Shown here piece after piece: positions 29,039 to 48,241 of a stretch of 64,000 nt of DNA. The position numbers were made by a program, and so were the translations under genes. The stretch is from contig NZ_CP107945.1 in assembly GCF_036057275.1 (NCBI RefSeq), positions 4,774,001 through 4,838,000 of the forward strand, given 5' to 3'. Position 1 is the stretch's first letter. Each line of letters opens with the position of its first letter. Below the pieces are notes generated by a model. It worked only from the letters and a program-made list of their open reading frames with translations, had not been told where the DNA came from and ran no database searches. This DNA comes from Streptomyces sp. NBC_00390. Lineage in GTDB: Bacteria > Actinomycetota > Actinomycetes > Streptomycetales > Streptomycetaceae.

Positions 29039-29045
29039 CGAACAT

Positions 29046-33719: not shown

Positions 33720-34171
33720 CCCTCCTGTGGGACCGGGATCCTGCGCACGTCGGAGTTTCGTAATAGCCGGTCCACCGCATCTGACACTCGCCGAGCAGGC
33801 TCCGCTCGTGTTCCTCGTGGCCGGCCTCACTGGCAGCAGCAACGAGCTCCTCGTACTGCTCGACCGATGGACGGTCTGTGTCGAAGTGGTGCACCACGCG
33901 ACTGAGTGCCAGAGGGCGCAGGGTGCCGTAGTCAGCGATACCGGACGGCGTCGGCGGGGCATCTGTGACAACAACCCTGTCGATGTCGAGGATCGTATGG
34001 GTGCTTGCCTTCTGTCCCCATGAACTCCTCGTCCTCGTACAGGTTCTCCAGGCTTCGGTAGCGGGCACCGTCGCCGTACTCCTCCTGAAACACCCTGGCC
34101 TGCAAAGTTGCCAAGGCCGCCTCGACATTGCCGTCGTACCTGGTGACGTAGTCCCATCCGCTGGCACCCAT
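33720..34171 (-). pseudogene. Frameshifted hypothetical gene (Streptomyces conserved type)
   Basis: The start at 34171 (MGASGWDYVTRYDGNVEAAL) leads into LQARVFQEEYGDGARYRSLENLYEDEEFMGTEG, after which the frame changes near 34010. The sense then continues as THTILDIDRVVVTDAPPTPSGIADYGTLRPLALSRVVHHFDTDRPS. Four extra bases (AAGC) at the junction would explain the shift. The usual C-terminus is also missing, since after MRWTGYY the frame runs into unrelated sequence. The intact form resembles a conserved Streptomyces protein of unknown role of about 160 residues. Confidence 0.55.
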
Positions 34172-34313
34172 CGAGCCACCCTCCCTGAAGATCGTCAACG
34201 GCCGAACGGTAGCGGCGGGGACTGACAACACCCCGGCTCGGCGCCGGGCTCAGGCCGGCTTCCCGGATCGAGGTGTCCAGAGGATGGCCGACCGCAGGAC
34301 GCAGACAGGCCCT

Positions 34314-34694
34314 CTAGCCGGCTGCTGGGTCTGCGGCCTTGTTCAGGCGGGCGATTTCGGCAGTGAGCTCGCTCGTCATGATGCTGCTCCTGCCGCTGGT
34401 GAGGAGTACCGCTCCCGCGACAGACACGGGCACCGACAGTCCGAGGATGCCGAGCAGTTCGGGCCAGTCCCGCTGAGCAGCGCACGGCTGGCGGAAGCTC
34501 GATCCCGAGTTGGCTGTGGGGCCGTCTGTGAACAGCCGCGACTCGCACATGCCACGGTCGGAGTCGTACGGCAGGAGCAGCAGTACAGCGAACCACAGCC
34601 ATAGTGCGACAGCGGCAGCGAGCAGTAGAAAGCCCCATGCCTCGGCCCGCTTCGCGCGTGCCCGAAAACGTATGTCGTACGCGAGCGAATTCAT
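34314..34694 (-). CDS. Small membrane protein with two helices
   Basis: 126 residues from ATG 34694. Two hydrophobic segments are visible, near residues 20-40 (AWGFLLLAAAVALWLWFAVLLLL) and 82-103 (LLGILGLSVPVSVAGAVLLT). An external loop between them has two cysteines (RGMCESRLF and RQPCAAQ) that could form a disulphide. The C-terminus is helical (TSELTAEIARLNKAADPAAG). No family is recognised. It is in line with the kinase gene but about 340 bases away, and that gap contains an inverted repeat at 34872-34899. Confidence 0.6.
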   Translation of the reverse strand: MNSLAYDIRFRARAKRAEAWGFLLLAAAVALWLWFAVLLLLPYDSDRGMCESRLFTDGPTANSGSSFRQPCAAQRDWPELLGILGLSVPVSVAGAVLLTSGRSSIMTSELTAEIARLNKAADPAAG

Positions 34695-34871
34695 GGCGCA
34701 TGAAACTACCAGGCCACATCGGCCGGGGTGTTCGTTCCCGGGTGGGGCTCGCGACCGTCTCGCACGGGGCCGGTCTGCCGTGGGGGCCACCGTCGACCAC
34801 GCGCCATCCACAGCCCACATCAGCAGCCCGTTGCAGACGCCCCGTCAGCTCATTTGCCGGCCGGCCGGTCC

Positions 34872-34899
34872 CGGTCCATTTCCTCCATCGAGGAAATGG
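34872..34899. promoter_or_regulatory. Perfect 12-bp inverted repeat in an intergenic region
   Basis: GTCCATTTCCTC (34872-34883) is followed after four bases by its exact inverse GAGGAAATGGAC (34888-34899). It lies 136 bases past the kinase stop and 178 bases upstream of the small membrane protein start. The arms are AT-rich for this genome. It could be a terminator for the kinase gene or an operator. The rest of the 340-base gap (34695-35034) holds nothing recognisable. Confidence 0.55.
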
Positions 34900-35034
34900 A
34901 CTCCGTGTTCAACGCGTGAGTGCCCTTGCGCCGGGCGAAGTCCCACGGCACCCACGGCGAAGTCATCGGCCATCGTGCGGTCCGCGACCAGCCATTGACG
35001 CCGGGATCACCAGCTCCGGTTGAACCACGCGCGT

Positions 35035-36684
35035 CTATCCGTGCTTTGTCCGTGTGGGGGAGAAACTCTCACGAGCCGCATCGAAGTGTCTTCGGATGTC
35101 GGGGACTGCGCTGTCGGGTCCGGTGGCCCAGAAGTCGTAAGTCCGCCCGTTCTTGGTGTACCGCAGATCGATCGAGCGACGGCGAACGCCTGAGGCGGTG
35201 TCGTACCAAGTGAACTCCCAGATGGCGGCAGGTGCACCGTTGTGCTCGAGCCGCTCCAGGCGGACTCGCCGGTATTTCGGATAGTCGCCGGCCGTCGAGG
35301 TGCCGGTGCCGTCGTTGTCCTGTGCCGAGAGTTCGGCATACGGGTCCCCCTTTCCGTCAGGCGGATTCAGATGGACGCCGAGCCCATAGGCTTTGTCTGC
35401 CGAGTAGTAGAAGATGCGGCGCTTGTCCGCATACGGTCCGGTCCAGTCTTTGCCGATCTCCACGGTGAATCCGGCCGGATCGCTGATCGCGCGGAACCCC
35501 GGGCGGGCGGCTGTCGGTGAAACCGACGGTGTGGCTTGGCTGCTGGGGGGAGTCTGGAACCGTTCGGCCAGCAGGGGAGGCACGGCATAGACACCTGCGG
35601 CGGCGAAGGCGATGACCGTCGAGCCTATGAGTGCACGGGTGATCCAGCGGCGGGAGGAGCGACCGGGAACCTGTGCCAGGTCCGTGCCTTCGGGCCGGAC
35701 GGGTCTTTGCCGGTCGGCCGCAGGAGCGGTGGGCCGGCGTTCCTCGGAGGCCATACCGGTTCCGAACTCGGATCGCCGCCGATTGCCGGGGACACGAGCG
35801 GATGCGGCTCTAGGGGTCGGCGCCTTGGTGCGGAGTGTGAGTCCGTGTGGCGGCGGCGTGTCGGGGCGCGCGGCGGCAATCAGCAGGGACCGGGCCGCTG
35901 ATGCCGTGATCCGCTGCGCCGGGTCCTTGGTGAGCAGGCCGTCGATGACCTCGCTGAGGGGACCGGCATTGCGGGGCGGGTCGTACGTGCCGTCGAGCAC
36001 GGCCTGGAGGGTTGCGAACTCGTTGTTGCGGCGGAACGGAGAGCGTCCCTCGACCATTTCGTAGAGGGTTGCTCCCAGGGACCACAGATCACACGCCGGT
36101 ACCGCCCTCAGTCCCTGGACGCGTTCCGGCGACAGGTACTCGAGTGTGCCGATCATCGCGCCGGGCACGGTCAGGGTGTCGGCGCCGGCCACGGAGGCGA
36201 TGCCGAAGTCGGTGAGAACGGTGCGGCCGTCCGGCCGGGCCAGCAGAAGATTGGACGGCTTCACATCGCGGTGCACCACACCGGTCGCGTGGGCCGCGAT
36301 CAGCCCGTCCAGCGCCTCGCGGGCGATGCGAGCCGCATCGCCGACCGCCACACGGCCGTCGGCCATTTCCTCCGAGAGGGAACGTCCCGCCACGAGCTCC
36401 ATGATGATCCACGGCCGGTCGTCGTCCATGACGACGTCGTGAATCTCGACCACGTTCCGGTGCTGGACCAGTGCCGCAGCCCTGGCCTCCCGCAGCGCCC
36501 GCTCCGTCCGTCGACGCCATTCTTCGGGGTCGAGATCGACGCGCGCCCGGATCTCCTTGACCGCGACCGCACGCCCCAGCTTCACGTCCTGGGCCGCCCA
36601 TACCGCGCCCATGGCTCCGCGTCCGATCAGCTCGTTCAGCTGATAGCGGCCCGCGGCCAAGCCCCGAACTTCCGGTTCGGCCAT
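35035..36684 (-). CDS. Ser/Thr protein kinase with external sensor domain
   Basis: 549 residues from ATG 36684 (GGGGACGGGGA upstream); an in-frame ATG at 36720 would add 12 residues. The kinase domain covers about 14-275: GRGAMGAVW, catalytic Lys43 in VAVKEIRA, HRDVKPSNLLL, DFGIAS and SPERVQG. A disordered Pro/Arg segment leads to one membrane helix near 370-392 (ALIGSTVIAFAAAGVYAVPPLL). The external domain of about 150 residues (GFTVEIGKDWTGPY, WEFTWYDTASG) is not PASTA. It is a membrane kinase of the Streptomyces Hanks type; the signal is unknown. Confidence 0.88.
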   Translation of the reverse strand: MAEPEVRGLAAGRYQLNELIGRGAMGAVWAAQDVKLGRAVAVKEIRARVDLDPEEWRRRTERALREARAAALVQHRNVVEIHDVVMDDDRPWIIMELVAGRSLSEEMADGRVAVGDAARIAREALDGLIAAHATGVVHRDVKPSNLLLARPDGRTVLTDFGIASVAGADTLTVPGAMIGTLEYLSPERVQGLRAVPACDLWSLGATLYEMVEGRSPFRRNNEFATLQAVLDGTYDPPRNAGPLSEVIDGLLTKDPAQRITASAARSLLIAAARPDTPPPHGLTLRTKAPTPRAASARVPGNRRRSEFGTGMASEERRPTAPAADRQRPVRPEGTDLAQVPGRSSRRWITRALIGSTVIAFAAAGVYAVPPLLAERFQTPPSSQATPSVSPTAARPGFRAISDPAGFTVEIGKDWTGPYADKRRIFYYSADKAYGLGVHLNPPDGKGDPYAELSAQDNDGTGTSTAGDYPKYRRVRLERLEHNGAPAAIWEFTWYDTASGVRRRSIDLRYTKNGRTYDFWATGPDSAVPDIRRHFDAARESFSPTRTKHG

Positions 36685-36960
36685 TCCCCGTCCCCCACGC
36701 CCGCTGTGCTCCGTGGCCATGCCGGGACTGTTACCTGCCGTCAGGCCTTCGATCTCCCGAGATTCTGCCTCAATACACCGAACCAGTGTGCCCGGGGTTG
36801 TACACAGGACCGGCTCAGCGACAGCACCCGGCGAATCCAGGAGCGGTTTGGCTCCCCACCGATTGCCGGTCTCCACTGTTGGGTTCGGGTTCAGCGCGGC
36901 CACCGGAGTCTGATCGGCACCCGTCATGCCCGGCAGCAGGTTTTTCCTGGCCAGACACTG

Positions 36961-37001
36961 TGCCCCGGCAGGATTCGAACCTGCGACACCCGCTTCAGGA
37001 G
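36961..37001 (-). pseudogene. 3' half of a tRNA-Arg(CCT) gene (attachment-site remnant)
   Basis: Read on the minus strand, the sequence starts at an anticodon loop CTCCTGA (anticodon CCT), then has an AGCGG stem strand, a GTGTC variable loop, a T-arm (GCAGG-TTCGAAT-CCTGC) and an acceptor strand CGGGGCA. The five bases before the loop do not pair with AGCGG, so the 5' half is absent. This is the expected trace of tRNA 3'-end integration by a mobile element. Confidence 0.75.
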
Positions 37002-37432
37002 TTCAACCATTTGAGCAGTTCGCCCTGGGACCCAGGCTCATGGCGGGGGTTGTGCGTGCTCGGCAAGTGCTATCGCGCTGCCCTCCCCGGGCGACGGCGC
37101 TCGGAGAATAACCTGAGGCACGTAGATATGACGGGAGTCATTTCCGCGGCAAGCCCGGGCAACCAACCCCCAGCGCCGTGCGCGGGCGGCCCGAGACCCC
37201 CAGACCAAAGATGCGCAGACCACGCGGGCCGCAGCAGGGAAACTGAACAGGCGCAATCCGCACGCTCGGCGCGCCCCCCTTGCAGGTGATGAGCGGTTGC
37301 CGTTACGTCCCCGGCGAAGGGGGTGAGACCGGGAGCGCCTGTGCGGCCAAGCGCGTGTTGGAAGCACGCGTAGCGGTCCGGGCCCAGGCGCGATCGAGTG
37401 CACCTCGAGGAGATCGGGAACCCCTTATCCGG

Positions 37433-37684
37433 GTGGACGCGGCCCCACCCCGCAATCTGGCCCCCTGGGAAACGATCGCCCAGGAGCTCACCGAAGCCAT
37501 CAAGGACGGCACCCTGCTTCCCGGCGAGGAAGTCCCCACGATCGGCGACATCGCCCAGGCCCACGGAGCCTCCGTCGGCACCGCCCACCGCGCCTTCGCC
37601 CAGCTCAAGCAAGCCGGCCTGATCGAGGTGGGCCGAGGCCGCCGAGCCGTCGTACGCAGCCACCACGAGAAGAGGCTGGAGTGA
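37433..37684 (+). CDS. GntR-type winged-helix regulator, probably a fragment
   Basis: 83 residues from GTG 37433; the frame is open back to about 37280 but the extra residues look unstructured. The core is a GntR DNA-binding domain: PWETIAQELTEAIKDGTLLPGEEVPTIGDIAQAHGASVGTAHRAFAQLKQAGLIEVGRGRRAVV. There is no effector-binding domain. Similar short GntR units occur in KorSA-type regulators or recombinase tails of Streptomyces integrative elements. It sits 430 bases from the tRNA-Arg remnant, which supports an origin in such an element. No strong ribosome site is seen. The 295 bases after it (37685-37979) hold no gene. Confidence 0.5.
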   Translation: MDAAPPRNLAPWETIAQELTEAIKDGTLLPGEEVPTIGDIAQAHGASVGTAHRAFAQLKQAGLIEVGRGRRAVVRSHHEKRLE

Positions 37685-37979
37685 GTAGCTGGGACGGGCG
37701 ACGCTGGCACTCCTACCGTTTCGGCACCTGACGGGACGCAGGGGAGATGCCCCGGCCGACGGGTGTTCTGCCACTGCCTGAGCGTTGAGAAGGGCGCTTG
37801 GCATCTGCGGGTGGCACCCCTGGCGTGAGCTGGTACGTAGTCCTGCTACTGCTGCTGATTCCGCACTTCGACATCCATTCGACTGCGGCGGCCAGCGTGC
37901 ATCCCCGCCATTGAGTCCACGTCACCGGGCCTGACCCAGACCCAGGGGACGCGCAGGCCTCTGCCTCCGGCACCGTCGT

Positions 37980-39890
37980 TCAGTCGGCGATGTCGACCCC
38001 GTATCCGCGTACCAGGACATCGAGGCCGTGGTCGTAGCCCTGGCCCACGGCGCGTAGGCGCCAGACCGGACCCCTGCGGTAGATCTCCGCGAGCAGCATG
38101 GTGCGCTCGGTGGTGGCTGCATCCAGGGTGGCCCGGGCAAGAGGGGCCCCGCTGCTGCCAGGGGCCGCACCGATCTGGATCGCACCGACCGTGCCGAAGG
38201 TGGCGGCGCCGTCGATGGCCGCAGCGACGACGACCTTGTGCGTCGCGGGCGGCAGGGACGCGAGGTCGAGGGCGATGGTCTGTTCGGCCGGGCCGCCGGT
38301 CAGCAGCCGCACAGTTCCGGCCGGGCTCTCCGGAGCTCCGTAGAAGATGAAGTCCCCGTCGAAGGTGACCTGTTCGTCCTCGTCGAGGAGGAAGGCGACG
38401 ACGTCGATCTCGTAGCCGGACTGCGGGGCCCAGCCGGCGGTGACGTACCACTCCGGCGCGGGTCTGCCGTGGGGCATGGGCAGGTCGATGACCCCGCCTC
38501 TCGGCATCACGTGCGGCTCCTGAAGCCGTGGAGCCGCCTCGGACGGGGAAGCGGCGGTCGGAGCGGTGAGCCAGTGGAGGTCGTGCACGGGGAGCCCGAG
38601 GGCGGTGATGCGGCTCATGCGCCGGTCGCCCTCCCCTCCCGGCAGGAGCACGACGTCGGTGACGCTGGCGGACAGGTTGACCGCCGCGGACCCGCCCAGC
38701 CCGACGATTCGGGTACGAGTCGCCGCGGCATCGGCATGGGCACCACCGAGCACCAGCACGCGACGCCCGGCCAGAGGCTTGTCCAAGGTGCCGACGGAGG
38801 GCTCCGGTCGACGCGGAGCGGGTACTGACACATCGGGGGCGGCCGTAGGGAAGGCTGCTGCCTCCGGAACGGGTGCGGCAGAAGTCGTGGTCGGCACCGG
38901 CTCCACGGGTCCGACGACTGGTTCTGCTTCCGGCTCAGCCACCGGGACGACAGCGACGGCCGCCGCCTCATGCGCTGTCCCCGGCCGTACGTCGGCCAAC
39001 AGCCGTAGGAAGGTGTGCTCGTCGATGACCGGCACGCCTTCGGCGAGCGCGCGTCGGGCCTTCGCTGAATCGGACGCCGGTTCATTGGTGACCAGCACGC
39101 TGGTGTGCCGGCTTACGGAGGTCATCATGTTCAGCCCAGAGGCAACCGCCCGCCCGACCAGCTCCGCTCGGGCATGGGCGGTCTCACCGGTGATCGCGAC
39201 CTTCATCCCCTGCTGGAGAGGCCCGCCGGGTGCCGGCCGTCCCGGATTGCGGTACGCGCAGGGAGTCTTCGGCGGCCTCGGCGTGAACGGGGACTCTGCC
39301 CGGGGCGGGCAGGTCACCAGCGGTAGGGGCAGATCGAGCCGCGCTGCCTCGCGCAGGGACGCCCGCAGGATCCCGGCCAGCACACGGGTGTCGTGCAGCG
39401 CATCGTGAGCACGCTGCTGGGGGACGCCGTAATGGGCGGCGAGGGTGCCGAGCTTCATGTCGTCCGTCGGCGGATCCACCTGGCGATTCAGAGCCAGGGT
39501 GCACAGCCGCTGCGACACCGGCAGCCACATCCGCGCACGGGCGAACTCGTAGGCCAGGAAGTCGTAGTCGAACTGGGCGTTGTGGGCGACCAGGACCCGG
39601 TCCTGGAGCATCGCTCCGATCCGCCCGGCGACCTGGTCGAAGGTCGGCGCCCCATGCAGTCGCTCGACGGTCAGCCCGTGCACCTCCACCGGCCCCGGAT
39701 CGCAGCCCGGATCGAGCAGCGTCGAGAACTCCCCGGTCTGCTCGCCGTCCGGACCGATCGTGATCACCGCTACGGACACTACGCGGTCTCGCCGAGCTAT
39801 GAGCCCCGAGGTCTCCACATCGATCAGGGCCCAGTCGTAGGCGTAGTCGCCCATGGAGGGCACGTCCAAGGAGGTGGAGACGAGACTCAT
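37980..39890 (-). CDS. DEDDh exonuclease - BRCT - BRCT - TerD fusion protein
   Basis: 636 residues from ATG 39890. Residues about 18-190 form a DnaQ-type 3'-5' exonuclease with all DEDDh residues: Asp24 and Glu26 in LIDVETSG, Asp in HNAQFDYDFL, and His/Asp in HDALHDTRVL. A first BRCT domain (MKVAITGETAHARAEL... VLVTNEPASDSAKARRALAEGVPVIDE) covers about 228-305. After a Pro/Glu/Val linker, a second BRCT-like unit (AGRRVLVLGGAHADAAATR) covers about 370-440. Residues 460-636 are a TerD domain with the calcium-binding type EIDVVAFLLDEDEQV...DGDFIFYG motif. It links DNA repair with the Ter stress system. Confidence 0.85.
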   Translation of the reverse strand: MSLVSTSLDVPSMGDYAYDWALIDVETSGLIARRDRVVSVAVITIGPDGEQTGEFSTLLDPGCDPGPVEVHGLTVERLHGAPTFDQVAGRIGAMLQDRVLVAHNAQFDYDFLAYEFARARMWLPVSQRLCTLALNRQVDPPTDDMKLGTLAAHYGVPQQRAHDALHDTRVLAGILRASLREAARLDLPLPLVTCPPRAESPFTPRPPKTPCAYRNPGRPAPGGPLQQGMKVAITGETAHARAELVGRAVASGLNMMTSVSRHTSVLVTNEPASDSAKARRALAEGVPVIDEHTFLRLLADVRPGTAHEAAAVAVVPVAEPEAEPVVGPVEPVPTTTSAAPVPEAAAFPTAAPDVSVPAPRRPEPSVGTLDKPLAGRRVLVLGGAHADAAATRTRIVGLGGSAAVNLSASVTDVVLLPGGEGDRRMSRITALGLPVHDLHWLTAPTAASPSEAAPRLQEPHVMPRGGVIDLPMPHGRPAPEWYVTAGWAPQSGYEIDVVAFLLDEDEQVTFDGDFIFYGAPESPAGTVRLLTGGPAEQTIALDLASLPPATHKVVVAAAIDGAATFGTVGAIQIGAAPGSSGAPLARATLDAATTERTMLLAEIYRRGPVWRLRAVGQGYDHGLDVLVRGYGVDIAD

Positions 39891-40146
39891 GGTGGCAAGG
39901 ATGATGCGATATGCAGCCCTCCTTCAACCTGCATGACGATTTGCCCTCATCTGGACGGTCGTGGCGAGGTGGTCGTCTCGCGCCGACCGCAGAGAGACCG
40001 CACCGGAATTTCGGGAAGTTCTCGGGAAGAACACCGCCAAGGACCGGACAAAATCGTCTCCAGCAGGACTCCCGCCGACTTCACCAGGGGGTCCTCCGCC
40101 CCCGTGCAACCACTCCGCCGGACTCGAAGAACTGGCCCTGACCAGC

Positions 40147-40172
40147 AAAAACGCCCTCACAAAGGGAGGGCG
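40147..40172 (-). terminator. Intrinsic terminator with T-run next to the tRNA-Arg(TCT) remnant
   Basis: On the minus strand CGCCCTC pairs with GAGGGCG around a seven-base loop and is followed by TTTTT (40147-40151). It comes directly after the tRNA remnant at 40181-40223 in the tRNA's reading direction, so it is probably the terminator of the original tRNA gene, moved together with it. Confidence 0.75.
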
Positions 40173-40180
40173 GAGAGAGG

Positions 40181-40223
40181 GCGCCCCCGGTAGGACTCGA
40201 ACCTACGGTCAAGCGCTTAGAAG
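40181..40223 (-). pseudogene. 3' half of a tRNA-Arg(TCT) gene (attachment-site remnant)
   Basis: On the minus strand the sequence begins with the loop CTTCTAA (anticodon TCT) and continues with stem strand GCGCT, variable loop TGACC, T-arm (GTAGG-TTCGAGT-CCTAC) and acceptor CGGGGGC followed by GC. The bases before the loop do not complete the anticodon stem, so the 5' half is missing. A T-run terminator follows at 40147-40172. The whole 704-base region 39891-40594 has no gene. Confidence 0.75.
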
Positions 40224-40311
40224 AGACTGATCGCGTTCAGGGTGGTCACGGCTCTGACCTGCTGCTTAGGGTCGCAAGCGGCGTTCGCCGCAGCCATCGC
40301 TACCGCTCATC

Positions 40312-40340
40312 CACCGGAGGGCAAGATTCCGCCCCTCCGG
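40312..40340. terminator. Hairpin in the intergenic region before the SMI1-like gene
   Basis: ACCGGAGGG (40312-40320) pairs with CCCTCCGGT (40332-40340) around an 11-base loop. There is no T-run. It lies in gene-free sequence beside the tRNA-Arg(TCT) remnant and may be a terminator or part of an old element end. Confidence 0.35.
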
Positions 40341-40594
40341 TTGACTGCCGCGGGAGTGCGGGAGGGAGCGGGGACCTCCGGTGCCGGTCCTCAACACGCT
40401 TTCCAACTGTTGGTGCCTCGCTGAGCTGCGTGCGGGGACGCTGACCGGCGTTCCTGGGCAACTGGCCGACTGGCTGACGTCTGGCTTGCGTCCGATCTGA
40501 ACGGGGCTGAACGTAGCTGAATGAGGCGGAAACTGAGACTGAGCCCGTGCCCAACTCGGGTGACGGCGGGGCCCGGTGGCGTTAGCGTGAAGCG

Positions 40595-41197
40595 ATGATC
40601 AGCAATGAGGGGGTACGCCTTGGTGCGGAGGCCGCACGGTGCCTGGCACAGACAGGTCTCTATCAGTTCGAGCCTGGGCTGACCGATGCCGAGTTCGCGC
40701 GCATCGAGGGCGAGTACGGCTTCGAGTTCGCGGTCGATCACCGTGCATTTCTTGCGGCAGGTCTTCCGGTCAATGTTCCTCCCGAGGCGGGGCAGGCTTG
40801 GTCCAAGCCTTGGCCTGAGTGGCGCAGCGGGGATCAGGACAGGTTGCGCGATCAGCTCGGCTGGCCGGTCGAGGGTGTTCTGCTCGACGTTGAGCACAAC
40901 GGGTTCTGGTACGTGGCCTGGGGTGAGCGTCCGGTCGATGATGCGGCTGCACTGGCCACGGCACGGCGCCATCTTGCAGATGCGCCGGTGTTGGTTCCTG
41001 TGTACGCCCACCGGTACCTTCCCGCCGGCCAGGGGAGTTTTGGGCATCCGGTGCTCTCGATGTGGCAGACCGACATCATCTACTACGGGCTGGACTTGGT
41101 CGACTACATACACCAGGAGTTCGACGAGGCACGGGGTGACGTGGACGAGAGCTGGAACCCGAGAGCAACCGTCCCCTTCTGGCGGGACCTACTCTGA
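40595..41197 (+). CDS. SMI1/KNR4-like protein (immunity-type)
   Basis: 200 residues from ATG 40595. The first half has the SMI1/KNR4 outline: LTDAEFARIEGEYGFEFAVDHRAFLAAGLPVN, then WPEWRSGDQDRLRDQLGWPVEGVLLDVEHNGFWYVAWGERP. The second half has LVPVYAHRYLPAGQGSFGHPVLSMWQTDIIYYGLDLVDYI. In bacteria this superfamily is mainly made of immunity proteins of polymorphic toxin systems, alongside regulatory relatives. It stands alone in the accretion zone, without a toxin gene, as orphan immunity genes often do. The protein looks complete. Confidence 0.8.
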   Translation: MISNEGVRLGAEAARCLAQTGLYQFEPGLTDAEFARIEGEYGFEFAVDHRAFLAAGLPVNVPPEAGQAWSKPWPEWRSGDQDRLRDQLGWPVEGVLLDVEHNGFWYVAWGERPVDDAAALATARRHLADAPVLVPVYAHRYLPAGQGSFGHPVLSMWQTDIIYYGLDLVDYIHQEFDEARGDVDESWNPRATVPFWRDLL

Positions 41198-41611
41198 CTC
41201 CTTGGGGGCGGACGGAGCAGCGCGCTCTGAGCTTGGGAATCACCTGGCTGAATCGGGAGACTGCAGCCGTGACCTGGGGAAGCAGCCGTCAGCTGACTAC
41301 GAGAGACGCGAACGGCTGACCGCTGTTGACCGGTGTGCCTCGGTCGTTCTGGCATGCATCTGGCACGGCCCAATGGGATGCACCCCATCGTGATCCTGTC
41401 TCGTCGGCACTTCTCGGGTGCCATCAATGCCTCCTACGACCGACTCGCTCACCGATCTCAAAGATTTCCTGGACTCCCGTACAACCTGTGGGGTCCCATG
41501 AGGGTCGCTTGTGCAGGAACTACGGGATCGCCGACGGCTACCCCGCCGGCACCACGGTCAACTACGCCCCCCGCGTCGGCTCACTCCTACCTGTCCCAAG
41601 TCAGAAGGCAC
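41198..41611 (+). other. Gene-free region with no recognised feature
   Basis: This 414-base stretch separates the SMI1-like gene from the FG-GAP gene. A short frame near 41515-41600 reads NYGIADGYPAGTTVNYAP in coding style and may be a scrap of an older gene. An AGAAGG ribosome site at its end belongs to the next gene. Otherwise nothing is seen. Confidence 0.3.
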
Positions 41612-43063
41612 ATGAACATCAGACACCCGCTCGGCATTACCCTCGCCACCGCGACAGCGGTGGCCCTCGCCGGCGGTCTCCTCACCTTGGTTGCGACTCC
41701 CGCGGCGGCGGTCACAGCGAAGTACGCGGACGACTTCAACGGCGACGGGTACCAGGACCTCGCCACCGCTGCCCTCGGTACCACTGTGGACGGCGCGAAA
41801 TACGCGGGAGCCGTGGTCGTCAACTACGGCTCGGCATCGGGCATCAGTGCATCCAACCGCAAGGTGATCACCCAGAACACGACCGGGATTCCCGGCTCTG
41901 CCGAAGACAATGACTACTTCGGTGCCGCCCTCGCCTCCGGCGACCTCAACAACGACGGCTACGCCGATCTCGTCGTCGGCGCCCTGGGTGAAGACGTGGG
42001 GGACGACACCAACGGCGGAACGGCCGTCGTGATCTGGGGAAGCACATCGGGCCTCTTCGGTGCCCGAACCATCGCTGACCCCAACGCGTCCGGGCACGAC
42101 TGGTTCGGGAAAGCGCTGGCCATCGGTGACTTCAGCGGTGACGGCAAGGCTGACCTCGCCGTCGGCAGCTCGGGCAAGGACATATGGATCCACAAGGGCG
42201 GCTTCACCAAGTCGTCCGGCGCCGCCTCCCGGTACAAGCTCACCACGCCCCTTCAGAGCGGTTCCCATCACGGTGCCGAGTCGCTCCTCTCAGGCGACGT
42301 GAACTGTGACGGCTCCGACGATCTGGTGGTCAACGGCACGTACAACCCCGACACGTCGCACATGCACTACGCGACCCTGGTGTACCTGGGCTCAGCGTCG
42401 GGCCTGGCTTTCCAGGACGTGCTCGAAAGCGACAGACAGGCGGCCCTCGGCGACATCAACGGGGATGGCTACGACGACGTGGTCACCAGCGCCTGGTCGG
42501 GCGGCGCCGGCGGAGACAACCTCGGCGGCTCCATCACCACCTATTTCGGCGGGGTTGAGGGCATCCGCACCGACGCGGTGCAGACCATCGAGCAGGACAC
42601 CCCGGGCGTGCCCGGGGCCGACGAGTGGGACGACGACTTCGGCCACGCCCTTTCGCTCGGCGACATCGACGGAGACGGCCTCGATGACGCGGCCGTCTCC
42701 GCGTTCAAGGAGAGCATCGGCTCCGCCACCCTCACCGGCAGCGTCACGGTGTTCCGCGGCACGCCGGCCGGGCTGTCCGCCTCCGATGCCAGGATGTTCC
42801 ACCAGGACACTGCCGGGGTCCCCGGTGCCAACGAGGACAACGACCGTTTCGGTTCCTCTGTACGGCTCTCCGACCTCAACAGGGACAGCTACGCGGATCT
42901 GTCCGTCGGCGCCGAGGGAGAGAACGGCGCCGACGGAGCCCTGTGGAGTCTGCGTGGTTCGTCATCAGGCCTGACCACCAGGAACGCCATCAGCTTTGGA
43001 GCCTCCTCCGTGGGCCTTCCGACCTCCGGCTACCCAGAGCTCGGACGCGGAATGCTTCGCTGA
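41612..43063 (+). CDS. Secreted FG-GAP/VCBS repeat protein
   Basis: 483 residues from ATG 41612 (AGAAGG six bases before). The N-terminus (MNIRHPLGITLATATAVALAGGLL... ATPAAA) is a signal peptide. The rest is a series of about seven integrin-like FG-GAP repeats, each with a calcium-binding Asp loop: DFNGDGYQDL, DLNNDGYADL, DFSGDGKADL, DVNCDGSDDL, DINGDGYDDV, DIDGDGLDDA, DLNRDSYADL. They form a seven-bladed propeller, probably an extracellular binding module. No catalytic domain is attached. A strong hairpin terminator follows at 43101-43142. Confidence 0.88.
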   Translation: MNIRHPLGITLATATAVALAGGLLTLVATPAAAVTAKYADDFNGDGYQDLATAALGTTVDGAKYAGAVVVNYGSASGISASNRKVITQNTTGIPGSAEDNDYFGAALASGDLNNDGYADLVVGALGEDVGDDTNGGTAVVIWGSTSGLFGARTIADPNASGHDWFGKALAIGDFSGDGKADLAVGSSGKDIWIHKGGFTKSSGAASRYKLTTPLQSGSHHGAESLLSGDVNCDGSDDLVVNGTYNPDTSHMHYATLVYLGSASGLAFQDVLESDRQAALGDINGDGYDDVVTSAWSGGAGGDNLGGSITTYFGGVEGIRTDAVQTIEQDTPGVPGADEWDDDFGHALSLGDIDGDGLDDAAVSAFKESIGSATLTGSVTVFRGTPAGLSASDARMFHQDTAGVPGANEDNDRFGSSVRLSDLNRDSYADLSVGAEGENGADGALWSLRGSSSGLTTRNAISFGASSVGLPTSGYPELGRGMLR

Positions 43064-43100
43064 CGCTGAAAGCTGGTCACCCCTGCGTCGATCATCGGTG

Positions 43101-43142
43101 AGCGCCCTCCCACGGCCCCTGAACGGCCCCCGGGAGGGCGCT
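43101..43142 (+). terminator. Terminator after the FG-GAP gene
   Basis: AGCGCCCTCCC at 43101-43111 pairs perfectly with GGGAGGGCGCT at 43132-43142 around a 20-base loop, 37 bases after the stop codon. A short T-containing tail follows. Confidence 0.7.
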
Positions 43143-43155
43143 TCGTTGTGCGGGT

Positions 43156-43176
43156 GACACCCGCTTTAAGGAGTTC
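43156..43176 (-). pseudogene. Short tRNA-Arg(CCT)-like fragment
   Basis: On the minus strand this reads GAACTCCTTAAAGCGGGTGTC, which matches the anticodon loop, stem strand and variable loop of the fragment at 36961-37001 except for one extra A and a T for G. The T-arm and acceptor are absent. It may be the other end of an element that used the same tRNA, 6.2 kb from the longer fragment. The region 43064-43417 otherwise holds only the terminator. Confidence 0.5.
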
Positions 43177-43417
43177 GATCAGCGCTGGACTCTGCCGTGG
43201 AGTCGTGTGGTGGCGCCAGCCGGGACAGCCCATGCAGGCATGCTGCCGTCCGGCCCTGTTGATGTCAGCCTGGGCTTAGCGCTTGCTCCACCGTCGCTGT
43301 CAGCTGACCGGGTCCGCACCCGTCCCAGGGCGGCCAGCGTCAGCCCCGCCTCAGCCGGTAAAGTGGCGACCTTCGGCCGGCGGAAGCCGTACGGAGTCCT
43401 CGAAGGCCGGGCACATC

Positions 43418-44185
43418 ATGCACCTCGCCGACCGTCCCGCACGCCGCCGTCTCAGCGCCGCCCTGGACAACCTTGCCGTCACCTTCCGCGGCATGACGGC
43501 GCGTCCGGACGAGCACAACTGCGAGTGTCACTGGGGCAGTCCAGAGGAGCTCTCCCTTCTGAAGACGCCGGACGTGGAGCTGGAGCCGGATCTCCTGCGC
43601 CGGACCTGGCAGGCCATCGACTGGACCGATCACGCGGCTGTGCTGCGCCGCGTCCTGCCGCAGTTTGCCGCGGTCCTGGTCGCCGGTCGCGCGGAACCCC
43701 TGTTCGGACTGGAAGAGGCCGGGTACTCCTTCGCCCGCGGCCGCTGGCAGCAGTGGCCTGAGGACCACGCCGGTCCGGTACGCGAGTTTCTGCATGCCTG
43801 GTGGGCGCACAGCCTCACCGAGCCGGATCCGGTCGTCCCGGCGCACCAGGTCTTCGTGATGTGTGCAGAGGCATCCGGAACGGTCCGCCCCTGGCTCGCC
43901 GAATGGGAGAAGCAGACCGGGTACCTCAGCGAACGGCGCCTCGCCGAGGCGGCGGCGGAATGGGAGTACGAGCTCCTGGGAGACAGCCTGCCGTGGAGCG
44001 TCGGCTGGTACGAGCACGACGCGGAGGAGATGCGCGCCGAATTGGTCGCCTGGCTCCTCGACCACGCTGCAGTGCGGCTCCGCGCGTCGGGCGCATCGTC
44101 GGATCTGCAGCACCGGATACGGCTGCTCGGACTCACCGGCGAGGACCGCTGGACGGATGCGCACTGGCCCGGCCACCGCTACTGA
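43418..44185 (+). CDS. Hypothetical protein, Trp-rich, helical
   Basis: 255 residues from ATG 43418. It opens with MHLADRPARRRLSAALDNLAVTFRG and carries CECHWGSPEELSLLKTPDVELEPDLLRRTWQAIDW, then helical stretches with many Trp residues (HAWWAHSL, PWLAEWEKQTGYLSERRLAEAAAEWEYEL). The CECHWG motif suggests a small metal site. I know no family name; similar proteins occur singly in Streptomyces genomes. It has good codon bias and is complete. It may have its own promoter after the terminator at 43101-43142. Confidence 0.6.
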   Translation: MHLADRPARRRLSAALDNLAVTFRGMTARPDEHNCECHWGSPEELSLLKTPDVELEPDLLRRTWQAIDWTDHAAVLRRVLPQFAAVLVAGRAEPLFGLEEAGYSFARGRWQQWPEDHAGPVREFLHAWWAHSLTEPDPVVPAHQVFVMCAEASGTVRPWLAEWEKQTGYLSERRLAEAAAEWEYELLGDSLPWSVGWYEHDAEEMRAELVAWLLDHAAVRLRASGASSDLQHRIRLLGLTGEDRWTDAHWPGHRY

Positions 44186-44324
44186 CGACCAGCGGGCGCG
44201 ACCTCGGTACCGTACCGCGTAGCCAGCGGCGTGTGTCGATGCGCTACTTGGCTGCGAAGAGGCCGGGCGTAGGGACTAAATCAGTAGCCGAAGAAGTGTC
44301 CAGCGGTCGTGTCCGGGCGGCTCC

Positions 44325-44543
44325 ATGTGGCCACCCGACTCCAACATCATCGGGACGAAGGTCGGCGGCTGGCCCGCCTGGAGGCAGCCTGCCGACTGGC
44401 CGAACTGCAAGAGCTGACACCGCATGGAGCACCTTCTGACCATCACCGGCGACATACAGTTGGGCGACTGCGGCGGCGTCTACTTCTTCCATTGCCGCCA
44501 GTGCCCCGCCTTCCCGTGGGACTGGCGCTTCGACTGCCACTGA
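44325..44543 (+). pseudogene. C-terminal remnant of a DUF1963/YwqG-like protein
   Basis: The frame from 44325 reads MWPPDSNIIGTKVGGWPAWRQPADWPNC, then meets a TGA at 44415, and goes on in the same frame as MEHLLTITGDIQLGDCGGVYFFHCRQCPAFPWDWRFDCH to the stop at 44541. The G-KVGGWPxW and LGDxGxVYFFxCxxC parts are the last two signatures of DUF1963-type proteins. The N-terminal two thirds are gone, and about 10-20 residues around the stop are missing. It is a decayed gene, not expressed as a whole. Confidence 0.6.
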
Positions 44544-44592
44544 CAGCTGAGGTCGGTGGATTCTCAATGGGGCGAGTCAACCCCTCAACGAT

Positions 44593-44648
44593 CTTGAAAA
44601 CCGTCGTGACAGCGATGTTACCGCGGGTTCAAATCCCACACCCACCGC
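44593..44648 (+). pseudogene. 3' half of a tRNA-Ser(TGA) gene (attachment-site remnant)
   Basis: The sequence starts at the anticodon loop CTTGAAA (anticodon TGA), followed by the stem strand ACCGT, the long class II variable arm (ACAGCGATGTTACCG) and a T-arm with TTCAAAT, ending in CCCACCGC. The T-stem has one mismatch (GCGGG opposite CCCAC), so it has drifted from a functional tRNA. The 5' half is absent. A hairpin follows at 44655-44689. Confidence 0.75.
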
Positions 44649-44654
44649 ACGTGA

Positions 44655-44689
44655 ACGGCCCCTGACCAGCCATCTCAGTCGGGGGCCGT
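44655..44689 (+). terminator. Hairpin after the tRNA-Ser remnant
   Basis: ACGGCCCCTGAC (44655-44666) pairs with GTCGGGGGCCGT (44678-44689), eleven Watson-Crick pairs and one G-T, around an 11-base loop. Its position seven bases after the tRNA remnant suggests it is the old tRNA terminator. Confidence 0.55.
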
Positions 44690-44809
44690 CGGCGTCCGCC
44701 CACCGTGATCGCCCGGTGTTACCCGTGATTTCCCGCTCGTTCGGGCACGGGAGGGGCATGCTTCCCATCACCTGAGCCCGGCAGTCTCCTGGGCTGCGAA
44801 ACTCTCCGA

Positions 44810-45175
44810 GTGAGCTATCCCGCGACAGACGAGCTGTCCTCCCCCGAGCGCGCCTTCATGATCAATGCGACCGAGATCGACATCCTTCCCGGTGTCTGGG
44901 CCGACCTCGATGAGCCGCTGGCGTCCGGGCGTGCCGCGGACCTTGTCCCGATCCTCCTGTCTCTTGTCGACAGGGGATGGATCGAGGTGTCCCGGGTCAT
45001 CCCCTGGACGGCACCCGATGAGGCTGCGGGATTCCAGCCCGGTCCCACCATCCCGAAGCGGGCCCTTCCTACTCTTCTGTCGGACGCCGAGAACTGGGAG
45101 TACCTGCAATCTGGCGAGTGGTTGGGATGCCTGACATTGACCCTCACCGAGGCAGGACAACAGATCCCTCGATGA
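44810..45175 (+). CDS. Hypothetical conserved small protein
   Basis: 121 residues from GTG 44810. It reads SYPATDELSSPERAFMINATEIDILPGVWADLDEPL, then LVPILLSLVDRGWIEVSRVIPWTAPDEAAGF and WEYLQSGEWLGCLTLTLTEAG. The LILLxLVDRGWIEV part looks like a small winged-helix. It seems a genuine conserved Streptomyces protein, but I do not recognise its function. It may be an immunity or regulatory protein given the surroundings. The gene lies between the Ser and Ile tRNA remnants. Confidence 0.6.
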   Translation: MSYPATDELSSPERAFMINATEIDILPGVWADLDEPLASGRAADLVPILLSLVDRGWIEVSRVIPWTAPDEAAGFQPGPTIPKRALPTLLSDAENWEYLQSGEWLGCLTLTLTEAGQQIPR

Positions 45176-45241
45176 CTCGTGGTCAGCGACACGGTCGGCG
45201 GAGTTCTTGATGGCTGAAGCCCGATGGTTGGCTCGCCCGTG

Positions 45242-45273
45242 GGATTTGAACCTGTGGCCTCATCCTTATCAGG
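45242..45273 (-). pseudogene. Fragment of a tRNA-Ile(GAT) gene (attachment-site remnant)
   Basis: On the minus strand it begins at the loop CTGATAA (anticodon GAT), then has stem strand GGATG, variable loop AGGCC and T-arm start ACAGG-TTCAAAT-CC. After this it diverges from a functional tRNA, so the last T-stem bases and the acceptor are replaced. The preceding bases do not pair with GGATG. It is the fourth different tRNA represented by a 3' piece in this region. Confidence 0.7.
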
Positions 45274-45392
45274 TCGGTCCCACATCCCCGCTACGCCAGG
45301 GGATGCAGCCGGTTCACCGGCCGCGGTGGTCGTTGGTCATCGGCCGTAACCGCCGGTGTTTGCCGCTGTTGGTGTCAAGCGCTGATGTCAGC

Positions 45393-45775
45393 TCAGCTTG
45401 GACGGCAGGCAGCGATCAATGTGGCCAGCATGCCTACGGGGTCGTGCAAAGAGCGTGCGCCGTCAGTGACCACGCGGCGGGTGCCCGGGTCGATCGGGTC
45501 GGTGTCGGCCCAGGAAGGGGAGCCGATTCCGAATTCCACCTCCAGCCCGGAGGGGGTTGCGAAACGGCCCTCCAGGAGCACGCCCCATCGCTGCGTCCTG
45601 ATGGGCGTCGGCATGCCGAGGTCTCGCGCCCAGTCCTCGCCGTCGTAGAGGCCGGGCTCGGTGGTGAGCAGAGTCAGGTCGACGTCCGAGTCGGGTCGGG
45701 CAGCGCCACGGGCACAGGAGCCGACCAACAACAGGCCGGTGATGTCCTCGCGGGCGGCGGCCGATCCGCGACCCG
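45393..45775 (-). pseudogene. Nucleotidyltransferase-domain protein, N-terminally truncated
   Basis: The frame ending at 45393 encodes ITGLLLVGSCARGAARPDSDVDLTLLTTEPG, a minimal nucleotidyltransferase core with the GSxxxG and DxD metal motifs intact, then WARDLGMPTPIRTQRWGVLLEGRFATPSGLEVEFGIGSPSW. The usual N-terminal helix and start are absent; an in-frame codon at 45731 exists without a ribosome site. Upstream the sequence runs into a transposase fragment in another frame. Related proteins act in MNT-type toxin-antitoxin pairs or modify antibiotics. It might still be made from an internal start. Confidence 0.55.
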
Positions 45776-45824
45776 CTTGCGGCCCCCGCCCGGACGCCGC
45801 ACCCGACCCAGAGGCCCCTCACCC

Positions 45825-46020
45825 GCCTCAAGTTCGAACACGCCTTGCGGACCGTCGTCTCGCTGACCGCAGCGGCCTGTGCCACCGCCCGGACACCGCC
45901 GTGCCCCAGGCCCCGGGCCTCTGCAGCCATCAACAACCGCCGCTGCCGCTCGTCCAGATGCGGGAGCAACACCGCGAACTTCACGGCGAGTTGGTCACGA
46001 GTCTCATCCGGGATGCGCAT
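45825..46020 (-). pseudogene. N-terminal fragment of an ISAzo13-type transposase
   Basis: From 46020 the frame reads MRIPDETRDQLAVKFAVLLPHLDERQRRLLMAAEARGLGHGGVRAVAQAAAVSETTVRKACSNL, which is the helix-turn-helix N-terminus of ISAzo13-family transposases. After about 65 residues it breaks off into the nucleotidyltransferase remnant. No DDE domain is left. The 621 bases beyond (46021-46641) hold no recognisable gene or inverted end. Confidence 0.65.
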
Positions 46021-46641
46021 ACCACACCAGCGAGCCTCAGGGCGGGAAGCAACACCTTGATTCCCTGCAAGCCCTTAGCTTGCCCTTGCTCTGTTCGGAA
46101 CCGGAACTGCTGCGCCTGGGTCGCCTCCCGGCGCCTCCAACTGCCGTACGGCGAGTGCCAGCAGCGCATGGTCGGAACCGGTGGTCGCGCAGAGGCGTGC
46201 TGTGCTACCTGCGAAGTTCATCCGACGCTGCTGGAGCCGGGTGCTCGCCGGCTGCTGGGGGCGAGTGGGTATGTCGCGAAGCAGAAAGATCACGGTCATG
46301 GTGGTTGTGCTCGCGTTGACGGTGTAGACGCTGTTCTTCTGCCTCTAACCTAGGAGGTCGTTTTCATCCGCGAAGTCTGTTTGGTCCACACTCGTTCCAG
46401 TGTCGAGGCGCGACTCCCGAGGCGTCGATGCACCAACGCGGCTGGCGAGAGTCTGCGGGAGCCCGCATCGTCAGTCTCATCCCGTGAAGCCTGTCTCGCT
46501 CCCAGATGTATCTATAGCTGCGACTACTCTCGCTGCACCGCGCACGAACCCGATACGCGTGAGGTGCGAGTGCAGCACCGAGGCGCGTGAAGCGGTGCAA
46601 ACTGGATGAAAACGACCTCTCGGCGCGGCCGTCTGTGTCCC

Positions 46642-47835
46642 TCAGTCCTTCCTACCCTTCCCTCCGCCCTTCTTCGGAGGCTCTTCCTTCTCTTCTTCGT
46701 CCTTGTCGTCGTCAAACGAGGATGACGACAGGCCGGGAGAAGGCGTGGCCGACGTGGTGTCCGAGAGCCGAGCCTCACTGGGGGGCGTAGAGGTGGAGGG
46801 CACTGCGCTGCCCGGAGAAGGAGAGGAGGGGTCGCCCTCGCCGGAAGTCACAGAAGCGCCGATGACGGCTGCCATAGCGAACGCGACGGCTCCGGCGACA
46901 CCGATCACGGCTTTGGACGGCGTCCCGGTGGGCCGGGAACGCGACGGTCGAAGCGGGTGCGCCGGGGCTGGGGGGATGGGAGGGAAGGCCTGGGGCGCCG
47001 TGCTGGTCGTCGGCGCCTGGTCCGAGTGCGCTTCCACGGCGGCGAGCCAGCCCGCTGCCTGCTCGGCGGTCGGGCGTTGCACGGGGTCCTTGGCAAGCAG
47101 GAGCAGGAGGTGGTCAGCCAGTGATCGCGGTATCTCGGGGCGCAGATGGTCGGGCGGGACGGGGGCGGCGCTGACGTGCTGCTGGACGACGGCCGGTGTG
47201 TTCTCACCGAGGAACGGGGGGCGGCCGGTGAGCAGTTCGTACAGCACGCAGCCCAGTGCGTAGACGTCCGAGGCGGGCAGGGCGGGGCGTCCCACGGCGC
47301 GTTCGGGTGCCAGGTAGGAGCCGGTGCCCAGGATCTTGCCGGTTGCGGTGGGGGTGTGGGAAGCGTCGTCGGCGAAGCGCGCGATCCCGAAGTCGGTGAT
47401 CTTCACGATTCGGTTGGTGGTGAGCATGATGTTGCCGGGCTTGATGTCGCGGTGGATCACGCCTTGAAGGTGCGCCGCGGACAGGCCTGCCGCCATCTGA
47501 GCGCCGATCGCGCCGGCCTCCTGGGGATCCAGGAGCCCGTGCACGGCCAGTTCCTGGGCCAGGCTCCAGCCATCGACCAGCTCCATCACCAGGTAGAACC
47601 GGCCGTCGTGGCAGCCGGAGTCGTACATGCTGACCAAGTGGGGGTGGTTGAGGCGGGCCGCAGTCTGCGCCTCCATCCGGAAACGCTCGGCAGCCGCGTC
47701 GTCATCGTCCGCGCGGAGCAGCTTCACCGCCACCGGCCGGTCCAGCGCCTGGTCGGTGGCGCGCCAGACCTCGCCCATGGCACCGCGCCCCAGCGGCTCG
47801 TCCAGCCGATACCGCTCCGCAACCAGCACACCCAC
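46642..47835 (-). CDS. Ser/Thr protein kinase with single membrane helix and charged tail
   Basis: 397 residues from GTG 47835 (GGAAGGCGA six bases before). The kinase domain spans about 9-265: GRGAMGEVW, catalytic Lys38 in VAVKLLRA, HRDIKPGNIML, DFGIARF and LAPERAVGR, all as in active Hanks-type kinases. A Pro-rich linker leads to one membrane helix (AVIGVAGAVAFAMAAVIGASV), and the outside is only a Ser/Pro-rich stretch ending in an acidic then basic tail (FDDDKDEEEKEEPPKKGGGKGRKD). There is no PASTA sensor. The divergent gene encodes a peptidoglycan transpeptidase, a likely functional partner or target. Confidence 0.88.
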   Translation of the reverse strand: MGVLVAERYRLDEPLGRGAMGEVWRATDQALDRPVAVKLLRADDDDAAAERFRMEAQTAARLNHPHLVSMYDSGCHDGRFYLVMELVDGWSLAQELAVHGLLDPQEAGAIGAQMAAGLSAAHLQGVIHRDIKPGNIMLTTNRIVKITDFGIARFADDASHTPTATGKILGTGSYLAPERAVGRPALPASDVYALGCVLYELLTGRPPFLGENTPAVVQQHVSAAPVPPDHLRPEIPRSLADHLLLLLAKDPVQRPTAEQAAGWLAAVEAHSDQAPTTSTAPQAFPPIPPAPAHPLRPSRSRPTGTPSKAVIGVAGAVAFAMAAVIGASVTSGEGDPSSPSPGSAVPSTSTPPSEARLSDTTSATPSPGLSSSSFDDDKDEEEKEEPPKKGGGKGRKD

Positions 47836-48241
47836 ACTCGCCTTCCGACCGCGGCGACGCCGGCAGGCGCAGCCAGCCAATGTGACATGGGAGCTTCCGG
47901 CGGCGCAGCGGGCGCCGCACTCCTGCCACACCGCGTAGAAGAGCAAGGGGCAGGCAGGCGACGGGGGGACGCCCGGCCTGCCCCTTGCGTGGATGCCCGC
48001 ACGGGGGGAACGGGCACCACACCCGACCTTGCGCAGTCGGGCTCCTTTCATAACTGCGCGGGGAGCGCCGTTAACGTCACACCCTCCGCGCCGACGGGGC
48101 AGATGATGGTGCGGCCTGCCAGCGCGAAGCCGACCTGGTGGCCGTGCTGCGGGCGCGGGCTGAGTGGTTGACCCTGGCCGCGCCGCCCCTATGGTGGGGC
48201 CTCGGTGAGGAGTCTGGGGAGCGGGGATCAGCGGAGGACTT

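What the first reader, a model, noticed from the sequence alone, without database searches (positions are those of the whole stretch)
36961..45273. Graveyard of 3' halves from four different tRNA genes
Within 8.3 kb there are 3' pieces of tRNA-Arg(CCT), tRNA-Arg(TCT), tRNA-Ser(TGA) and tRNA-Ile(GAT). Each begins at the anticodon loop and none has its 5' half. tRNA 3' ends are the usual attachment sites of actinomycete integrative elements, and integrases commonly cross over at the anticodon loop. Four different tRNAs in one place, with no intact tRNA or integrase in 64 kb, suggests serial insertions followed by loss, or one element that collected attachment sites. It could also be a hub that supplies alternative landing sites.
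Basis: partly seen in the sequence, partly recalled or inferred. Interest (0 to 1): 0.75.

Follow-up and report, generated by a model that had tools for sequence, protein, structure and literature searches.

The report
Composite tRNA-Arg island with fossil attachment sites
The tRNA 3' pieces are real: one is an internal boundary of an ~80-kb stack of mobile elements inserted in a tRNA-Arg gene just outside the window, and the others are old attachment ends of elements that belong in other tRNA genes, so they record where pieces of the stack came from.

Summary
Observation confirmed. Four 3' halves of this genome's own tRNAs (Arg-CCT, Arg-TCT, Ser-TGA, Ile-GAT) lie where stated, start at the anticodon loop, and score 50-80 bits (best of 8 shuffles 34.7). 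A weak fifth, Gly-CCC, lies at w41221. The window hides the explanation. Intact tRNA-Arg(CCT) and a complete pSAM2-like AICE (RepSA, FtsK-type Tra, Xis, Int) lie 41 kb past its right edge. Six Arg(CCT) cores in one orientation run from there back to w36963, and relatives with an empty tRNA-Arg(CCT) place the chromosome at about w25.2 kb: an ~80-kb tandem (accretion) island. The other fragments are displaced ends of elements that target other tRNAs. w44587-45175 is 81% identical to the tRNA-proximal end of a complete AICE in intact tRNA-Ser(TGA) in another species; w37917-40223 is 85-90% identical to DNA attached to tRNA-Arg(TCT) in several. Cargo blocks between the fragments occur separately beside Gly, Val and Arg tRNA sites elsewhere. 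Likely mechanism: accretion plus recombination and integrase switching among AICEs, leaving relic att cores. Accretion and integrase switching in Streptomyces AICEs are known; relic foreign-tRNA cores I did not find described. The landing-site 'hub' idea is untested.

The parts
23468..25219 (+). chromosomal gene that is the native downstream neighbour of tRNA-Arg(CCT); marks the left edge of the island
   Evidence: homolog (69%) sits about 0.5 kb downstream of unoccupied tRNA-Arg(CCT) in G226 and G071
25220..64000 (.). distal part of the ~80-kb composite island; it continues to intact tRNA-Arg(CCT) at C1:4879211-4879284
   Evidence: Arg(CCT) cores at C1:4810963, 4847916, 4851206, 4853857, 4868368, 4879211, all (-); complete AICE at 4868411-4879254
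36963..37001 (-). Arg(CCT) 3' core, most distal of six; 1 substitution, and one G of the acceptor strand missing just beyond it
   Evidence: flank resembles the tRNA-Arg(CCT) element end of G025 (L117)
37917..40223 (-). Arg(TCT)-element end: DEDDh exonuclease-BRCT-TerD gene (37980-39890) plus Arg(TCT) core
   Evidence: 85-90% nt identity, left edge at w37917 (37917-37975) in all 6 genomes compared; linked to tRNA-Arg(TCT) or its core; Pfam
40181..40223 (-). Arg(TCT) 3' core; terminator similarity runs on to 40133
40388..41239 (+). cargo block A (gene 40595-41197, 200 aa, no Pfam)
   Evidence: found separately in more than 12 genomes, near Gly(CCC), Arg(CCT), Arg(ACG) and Val(TAC) sites
41221..41239 (-). 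probable fifth core, Gly(CCC) anticodon-loop piece, at the edge of block A
   Evidence: 19/19; homologs of block A end near here in AGCTTGGGAAGCT or a close variant in 8 genomes
41612..43063 (+). FG-GAP repeat protein, cargo
   Evidence: Pfam
43324..44202 (+). cargo block C (gene 43418-44185, 255 aa, no Pfam)
   Evidence: 81-91% nt identity in 13+ genomes; beside Arg(TCT) core and int remnant in G061, Arg(CCT) in G167, Gly(CCC) in G216 and G049
44314..44561 (+). cargo block D, ~247 nt with a 39-codon ORF
   Evidence: 92-96% identical in at least 7 other species; within 3-5 kb of tRNA-Arg(CCT) in G190 and G188
44593..44648 (+). Ser(TGA) 3' core (3 substitutions)
44587..45175 (+). Ser(TGA)-AICE end: core, terminator, arm-like repeats, gene E (44810-45175)
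   Evidence: 81% over 595 nt to the tRNA-proximal end of a complete AICE in intact tRNA-Ser(TGA), G076 L264
45242..45272 (-). Ile(GAT) 3' core, ends in the T loop
   Evidence: 21-nt core shared with G024 L148 and L154; orientation as in Ile(GAT) AICEs

Best explanation
The finding is the distal part of an ~80-kb composite island at tRNA-Arg(CCT). AICE-type elements inserted one after another at the tRNA 3' end, each leaving a 43-nt Arg(CCT) core; only the tRNA-proximal one is still a complete AICE. The Ser(TGA), Arg(TCT), Ile(GAT) and probably Gly(CCC) cores are relic attachment ends. Each is the core plus the adjoining end of an element family that targets that other tRNA, now carried inside elements with Arg(CCT) ends. 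Shown: the array, the empty sites in relatives, the homology of the Ser and Arg(TCT) end modules to elements at their proper tRNAs, and integrase exchange within this AICE's own backbone. Inferred: that recombination between AICE backbones and exchange of the xis-int-attP module changed the target and left the old core behind near the int-distal end, so a stack of foreign cores records earlier targets.
For: Six co-oriented Arg(CCT) cores up to intact tRNA-Arg(CCT), with the integrase ORF ending ~80 bp from it; RepSA, FtsK, GntR-NUDIX, HTH and Phage_integrase Pfam hits. Relatives with unoccupied tRNA-Arg(CCT) have a different native 3' half and the w23.5-25.2 gene next door; most cores of the array are followed by end types seen singly at tRNA-Arg(CCT) elsewhere. 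Ser module: 178 nt shared with attL of Ser(TGA) elements in many species, and window Ser end + gene E = end of an AICE in tRNA-Ser(TGA) in G076. Foreign Ser(TGA) cores also occur in elements at Arg(CCT), Ser(GGA), Gly(TCC), Tyr, Val(TAC), Thr(TGT) and beside a Pro(CGG) core; in 11 of 11 they point the same way as int or rep, as in true Ser(TGA) AICEs. The Arg(TCT), Gly(CCC) and Ile(GAT) cores have the orientation of native elements too. Integrase exchange: own AICE backbone is ~85% nt identical to G030 C41 and 70-82% to G034 C6, but similarity stops at 4877779-4877785, just before the rep stop; the other elements carry different integrases, G034's at tRNA-Arg(CCG).
Against: Foreign cores are a minority: 2 of 14 RepSA AICEs with both ends visible carry one. 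Displaced Ser cores lack the int-side arm of the true Ser(TGA) AICEs examined; similarity starts at the core's 5' edge. That fits a junction made at the crossover (tandem junction or integrase-made hybrid) as well as a retained attP. No intermediate with old and new integrase side by side was found. The element at the C1:4847916 core has no detected integrase, so its direction is inferred. The chromosomal-edge Arg(CCT) core is missing.
Confidence: 0.8

Rival explanations
1. Strict target-switch stratigraphy: one element lineage changed its integrase several times, and the order of cores outward from Arg(CCT) (Arg-TCT, Gly, Ser, Ile) is the reverse order of its former targets.
For: All four foreign cores have the orientation predicted from native elements; integrase exchange at the rep end is visible in this AICE backbone.
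Against: Divergence of the cores is not ordered; cargo blocks between them occur separately in other genomes, so several sources are likely; no intermediate seen.
Confidence: 0.3
2. Working hub: foreign cores are spare attachment sites that let integrases of other resident elements dock or move the island.
For: The Ser core in the own AICE is 56/56 identical to tRNA-Ser(TGA) and keeps terminator and arm-like repeats; an intact integrase at tRNA-Ser(TGA) is present; tRNA remnants have been reported as usable sites (PMC3218068).
Against: Only 2 of 14 surveyed AICEs carry such a core; no element found inserted in one; the Ile, Arg(CCT) and Gly copies in the window are truncated or damaged.
Confidence: 0.12
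3. One reading: four independent insertions into four tRNA genes at this spot, followed by loss.
For: Serial insertion at one tRNA did happen.
Against: No 5' halves here; intact Ser(TGA), Arg(TCT) and Ile(GAT) genes lie 0.5-0.7 Mb away; the fragments bring element ends and cargo known from other species.
Confidence: 0.03
4. Chance similarity or decayed duplicated tRNA genes without any role of mobile elements.
For: None beyond the weak Gly piece.
Against: 50-80 bits against a best of 34.7 in shuffles; every fragment starts at the anticodon loop; homologous modules at the matching tRNAs in relatives.
Confidence: 0.01

Closest known systems
pSAM2-type actinomycete integrative and conjugative elements (AICEs)
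   Same: Own element at tRNA-Arg(CCT) has the tra-rep-xis-int order with RepSA (PF20199), FtsK/SpoIIIE and tyrosine integrase, and a duplicated tRNA 3' end
   Different: It carries a second, foreign att module (Ser-TGA core, terminator, arm) 0.67 kb from its distal end
Accretion of AICEs and defective AICEs at one tRNA-Arg in Streptomyces (PMC9513070; S. avermitilis Sav3708/Sav3728, PMC3218068)
   Same: Tandem elements with different integrases in the same tRNA-Arg, bounded by direct repeats, with old remnants at the distal side
   Different: The passages read do not mention cores of other tRNAs inside the array
Integrase switching between AICEs (AICE03 in tRNA-Val versus rlmN, PMC9513070)
   Same: Same backbone with different xis and int and a different target; seen here between own AICE, G030 C41 and G034 C6
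   Different: Here a core of another target is also carried in cis
CIME-type cis-mobilizable remnants and site-specific accretion (ICESt1 family; Pavlovic et al. 2004, cited in PMC3218068)
   Same: Integrase-less segments between direct att cores (C1:4847958-4851206)
   Different: Segments in the window are bounded by cores of different tRNAs, so one integrase could not excise them singly

Membership tests
AICE (pSAM2 type), element at C1:4868411-4879254 | tyrosine integrase beside a tRNA 3' end, with attL and attR direct repeats | tested here: met
AICE (pSAM2 type), element at C1:4868411-4879254 | RepSA-type replication initiator and FtsK-like TraB | tested here: met
   PF20199 E=1.5e-155, PF01580 E=1.4e-34
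AICE (pSAM2 type), element at C1:4868411-4879254 | excision and mycelial transfer | not testable with these tools
   needs cells
Tandem accretion island | two or more elements or remnants in one attB separated by co-oriented direct repeats | tested here: met
   six Arg(CCT) cores, all (-); most end types seen singly at the same tRNA in relatives
Tandem accretion island | empty attB in relatives | tested here: met
   G226 and G071
Relic att end of a Ser(TGA)-targeting AICE (w44587-45175) | core plus flank homologous to the end of an element in intact tRNA-Ser(TGA) | tested here: met
   81% over 595 nt to G076 L264
Intact attP of a Ser(TGA)-targeting AICE (considered for w44587-45175) | both arms of the attP present | tested here: not met
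   left, int-side arm of the true Ser(TGA) AICEs examined is absent; hence filed as 'relic end', not 'intact attP'
Relic att end of an Arg(TCT)-targeting element (w37917-40223) | core plus flank found attached to tRNA-Arg(TCT) with a matching integrase | tested here: met
   G007, G011, G222 intact; G001, G156, G303 cores; integrase or remnant just outside in at least four; named species such as S. jeddahensis and S. regalis
Relic att end of an Ile(GAT)-targeting AICE | core and flank as in AICEs at tRNA-Ile(GAT) | tested here: inconclusive
   orientation and short 5' motif agree; homology is short and the 3' part diverges
Integron-like cassette array (considered) | one IntI-type integrase and repeated attC sites of one kind | tested here: not met
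   no integrase in the window; sites are different tRNA cores

The most novel reading that the evidence does not exclude
AICEs keep extra att cores of other tRNAs as usable tickets: integrases of other resident elements act on them in trans, so cargo blocks and whole elements shuttle between the tRNA islands of a genome and between species, which would explain the same cargo beside Gly, Arg, Val and Ser cores.
Probability: 0.13. Interest if true: 0.7.

Novelty: new variant of a known kind. Interest (0 to 1): 0.42.

Why it matters
Integrase switching in AICEs has been inferred by comparing elements. If foreign tRNA cores are its by-product, a single island keeps a readable record of where its parts used to integrate, and the record can be searched for in thousands of Streptomyces genomes. 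It also shows that tRNA islands of different tRNAs draw on one shared pool of cargo. Practically, a lone tRNA 3' fragment need not mean that an element once sat in that tRNA at that place.

Tried and rejected
Chance: rejected by Markov shuffles. Simple pair of attL/attR at 36963: revised when four more Arg(CCT) cores and the empty-site gene at w23.5-25.2 were found; the w36963 core is internal. Joined-flank query for an exact empty site with the w36.5-36.96 flank found no relative matching that flank, so that flank is not the native neighbour. Intact fossil attP with both arms: not met, left arm absent. Foreign core as an obligatory part of AICEs: rejected, 2 of 14. Integron-like array: rejected. 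Apparent short 'int4853' hits in many AICEs lie in a non-integrase stop-to-stop extension and were not used as integrases.
Full report
Where the window lies. The window is C1:4774001-4838000 of an 8.69-Mb actinomycete genome. Relatives found by one cargo protein are mostly Streptomyces, so I take the genus to be Streptomyces; the genome itself is unnamed. w = window coordinate.

Checking the observation. All 3' halves of the genome's tRNAs were compared with the window and 100 kb of flank. The four fragments are real: Arg(CCT) w36963-37001 (-), Arg(TCT) w40181-40223 (-), Ser(TGA) w44593-44648 (+), Ile(GAT) w45242-45272 (-). Each begins at the anticodon loop. Their scores (50-80 bits) exceed anything in shuffled sequence (at most 34.7 bits). 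A 19-nt Gly(CCC) piece at w41221-41239 is weak alone, but it is the edge of a block that in eight other genomes ends near the same point in the Gly(CCC) anticodon-loop palindrome or a close variant.

What lies outside the window. Intact tRNA-Arg(CCT) is at C1:4879211-4879284 (-), 68 kb to the right of the Arg(CCT) fragment and on the same strand. An integrase ORF ends about 80 bp from it, and the 10.8 kb beyond it form a complete pSAM2-like AICE: RepSA, FtsK/SpoIIIE, GntR-NUDIX, HTH and Phage_integrase domains. Arg(CCT) cores, all (-), occur at 4868368, 4853857, 4851206, 4847916 and 4810963. In relatives the DNA that follows most of these cores is found singly behind tRNA-Arg(CCT), so they are ends of different element families. 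In two relatives tRNA-Arg(CCT) is unoccupied; its native 3' half differs, and its neighbour is the homolog of w23468-25219. The island therefore spans about w25.2 kb to C1:4879.2 kb, close to 80 kb, and w36963 is an internal boundary. This is tandem accretion, already described at tRNA-Arg in Streptomyces (PMC9513070, PMC3218068).

The Ser(TGA) piece. Core, terminator and about 110 nt of arm-like repeats are shared with two other places in this genome, neither in tRNA-Ser(TGA): the AICE in tRNA-Arg(CCT) (4869078) and an element in tRNA-Ser(GGA) (4368309, about 20 bp from its attR). Most genomes searched in the genus have a match to the 178-nt module, in part only to the tRNA itself; in many it is attL of an element in intact tRNA-Ser(TGA) with its second core 10-19 kb away. 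The sharpest match is G076: a complete AICE in intact tRNA-Ser(TGA) whose tRNA-proximal end, including gene E, is 81% identical to w44587-45175 over 595 nt. Displaced Ser modules also lie in elements at Tyr, Val, Thr, Gly(TCC) and Arg(CCT) tRNAs and beside a Pro core in other species. In all eleven cases counted the core points the same way as int or rep, as it does in true Ser(TGA) AICEs.

The Arg(TCT) piece. w37917-40223, an exonuclease-BRCT-TerD gene plus the core, is 85-90% identical, with the same sharp left edge, to DNA attached to tRNA-Arg(TCT) or its core in six genomes; in at least four an integrase or its remnant lies just outside that edge. In a named collection the gene lies near Arg(TCT) sites in about fifteen species and near Arg(CCT), Arg(ACG) or Gly(CCC) sites in a few.

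The Ile(GAT) piece. About 21 nt with a short 5' motif recur in two G024 elements. In G151 and G080, tRNA-Ile(GAT) and a second core bracket an AICE with rep pointing to the tRNA, the orientation expected from the window copy. The homology is short, so this assignment is weaker.

Cargo between the cores. w40224-45300 breaks into blocks (A, C, D, E and an FG-GAP gene) that occur separately in other genomes, several beside Gly(CCC), Arg(CCT), Arg(TCT), Arg(ACG) or Val(TAC) cores or tRNAs. Islands of different tRNAs thus share cargo.

How it most likely arose. Shown: accretion at tRNA-Arg(CCT); homology of the Ser and Arg(TCT) pieces to element ends at their proper tRNAs; integrase exchange in this AICE lineage, where similarity to two sister elements stops just before the rep stop codon and different integrases follow, one of them at another tRNA. 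Inferred: exchange of the xis-int-attP segment, or recombination between AICE backbones, produced chimeric elements with Arg(CCT) ends that kept an older core near the int-distal end, and later elements stacked in front. A caution: the displaced Ser cores lack the int-side arm of the Ser(TGA) AICEs examined, and similarity starts at the 5' edge of the core. That points to a junction formed at the crossover, as in a tandem array or an integrase-made hybrid site, and not to an untouched attP. Strict reading of the order of cores as a history of targets is possible but unproven (0.3).

Is it required or functional? In 14 RepSA AICEs chosen without regard to foreign cores and with both ends visible, 2 carry one. 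So a foreign core is an occasional passenger.

Limits. Genome-wide fragment counts are incomplete. Gene calls are from a simple composition-based caller. Handles G001 and onward are unnamed species. The literature check covers only open full text, so the statement that relic foreign cores are undescribed means that I did not find them.

Noticed in passing
C1:4291328-4306683, 4368254-4373109, 5879895-5898090, 4323978-4326920, 3530036-3534766, 3829792-3840070 (L062, L063, L066-L069): At least six other tRNA genes of this genome (Ser-TGA, Ser-GGA, Val-TAC, Arg-ACG, Tyr, Thr-CGT) have a duplicated 3' half 2.9-18 kb away, i.e. integrated elements or remnants.
   Followed up: partly
L063 (C1:4368254-4368371): Ser(GGA) attR core and a Ser(TGA) core lie about 20 bp apart in opposite orientation at the distal end of the element in tRNA-Ser(GGA).
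   Followed up: partly
L083, L086, L090, L091, L096, L103, L135, L147: A GntR-family gene, 91-94% identical in protein, sits right behind tRNA-Ser(TGA) at the end of elements in many species; in L147 the integrase is at the other end.
   Followed up: no
L141 (G065:C1:4574301-4578095): Three co-oriented Gly(CCC) cores 1.0 and 2.7 kb apart: very small units flanked by att cores.
   Followed up: no
L204-L223, own AICE C1:4869780-4869878: A short conserved stretch (reads ...RGSPHGGCxKPxSRP) recurs upstream of the kor/tra genes of many AICEs; possibly a cis-acting locus rather than a gene.
   Followed up: no
w44314-44561: A 247-nt block with a 39-codon ORF is 92-96% identical in at least seven other species, above most of its surroundings, so it may have spread recently.
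   Followed up: partly
C1:4879211-4879284: tRNA-Arg(CCT) now has extra G-U pairs in its acceptor stem because the element-borne 3' half (CGGGGGC) replaced the native CGAGGGC.
   Followed up: partly
L199 (G067:C1:6145694-6150243): Two intact tRNA-Arg(TCT) genes 4.5 kb apart flank an integrase remnant; a full-length tRNA copy at an attR position is unusual.
   Followed up: no
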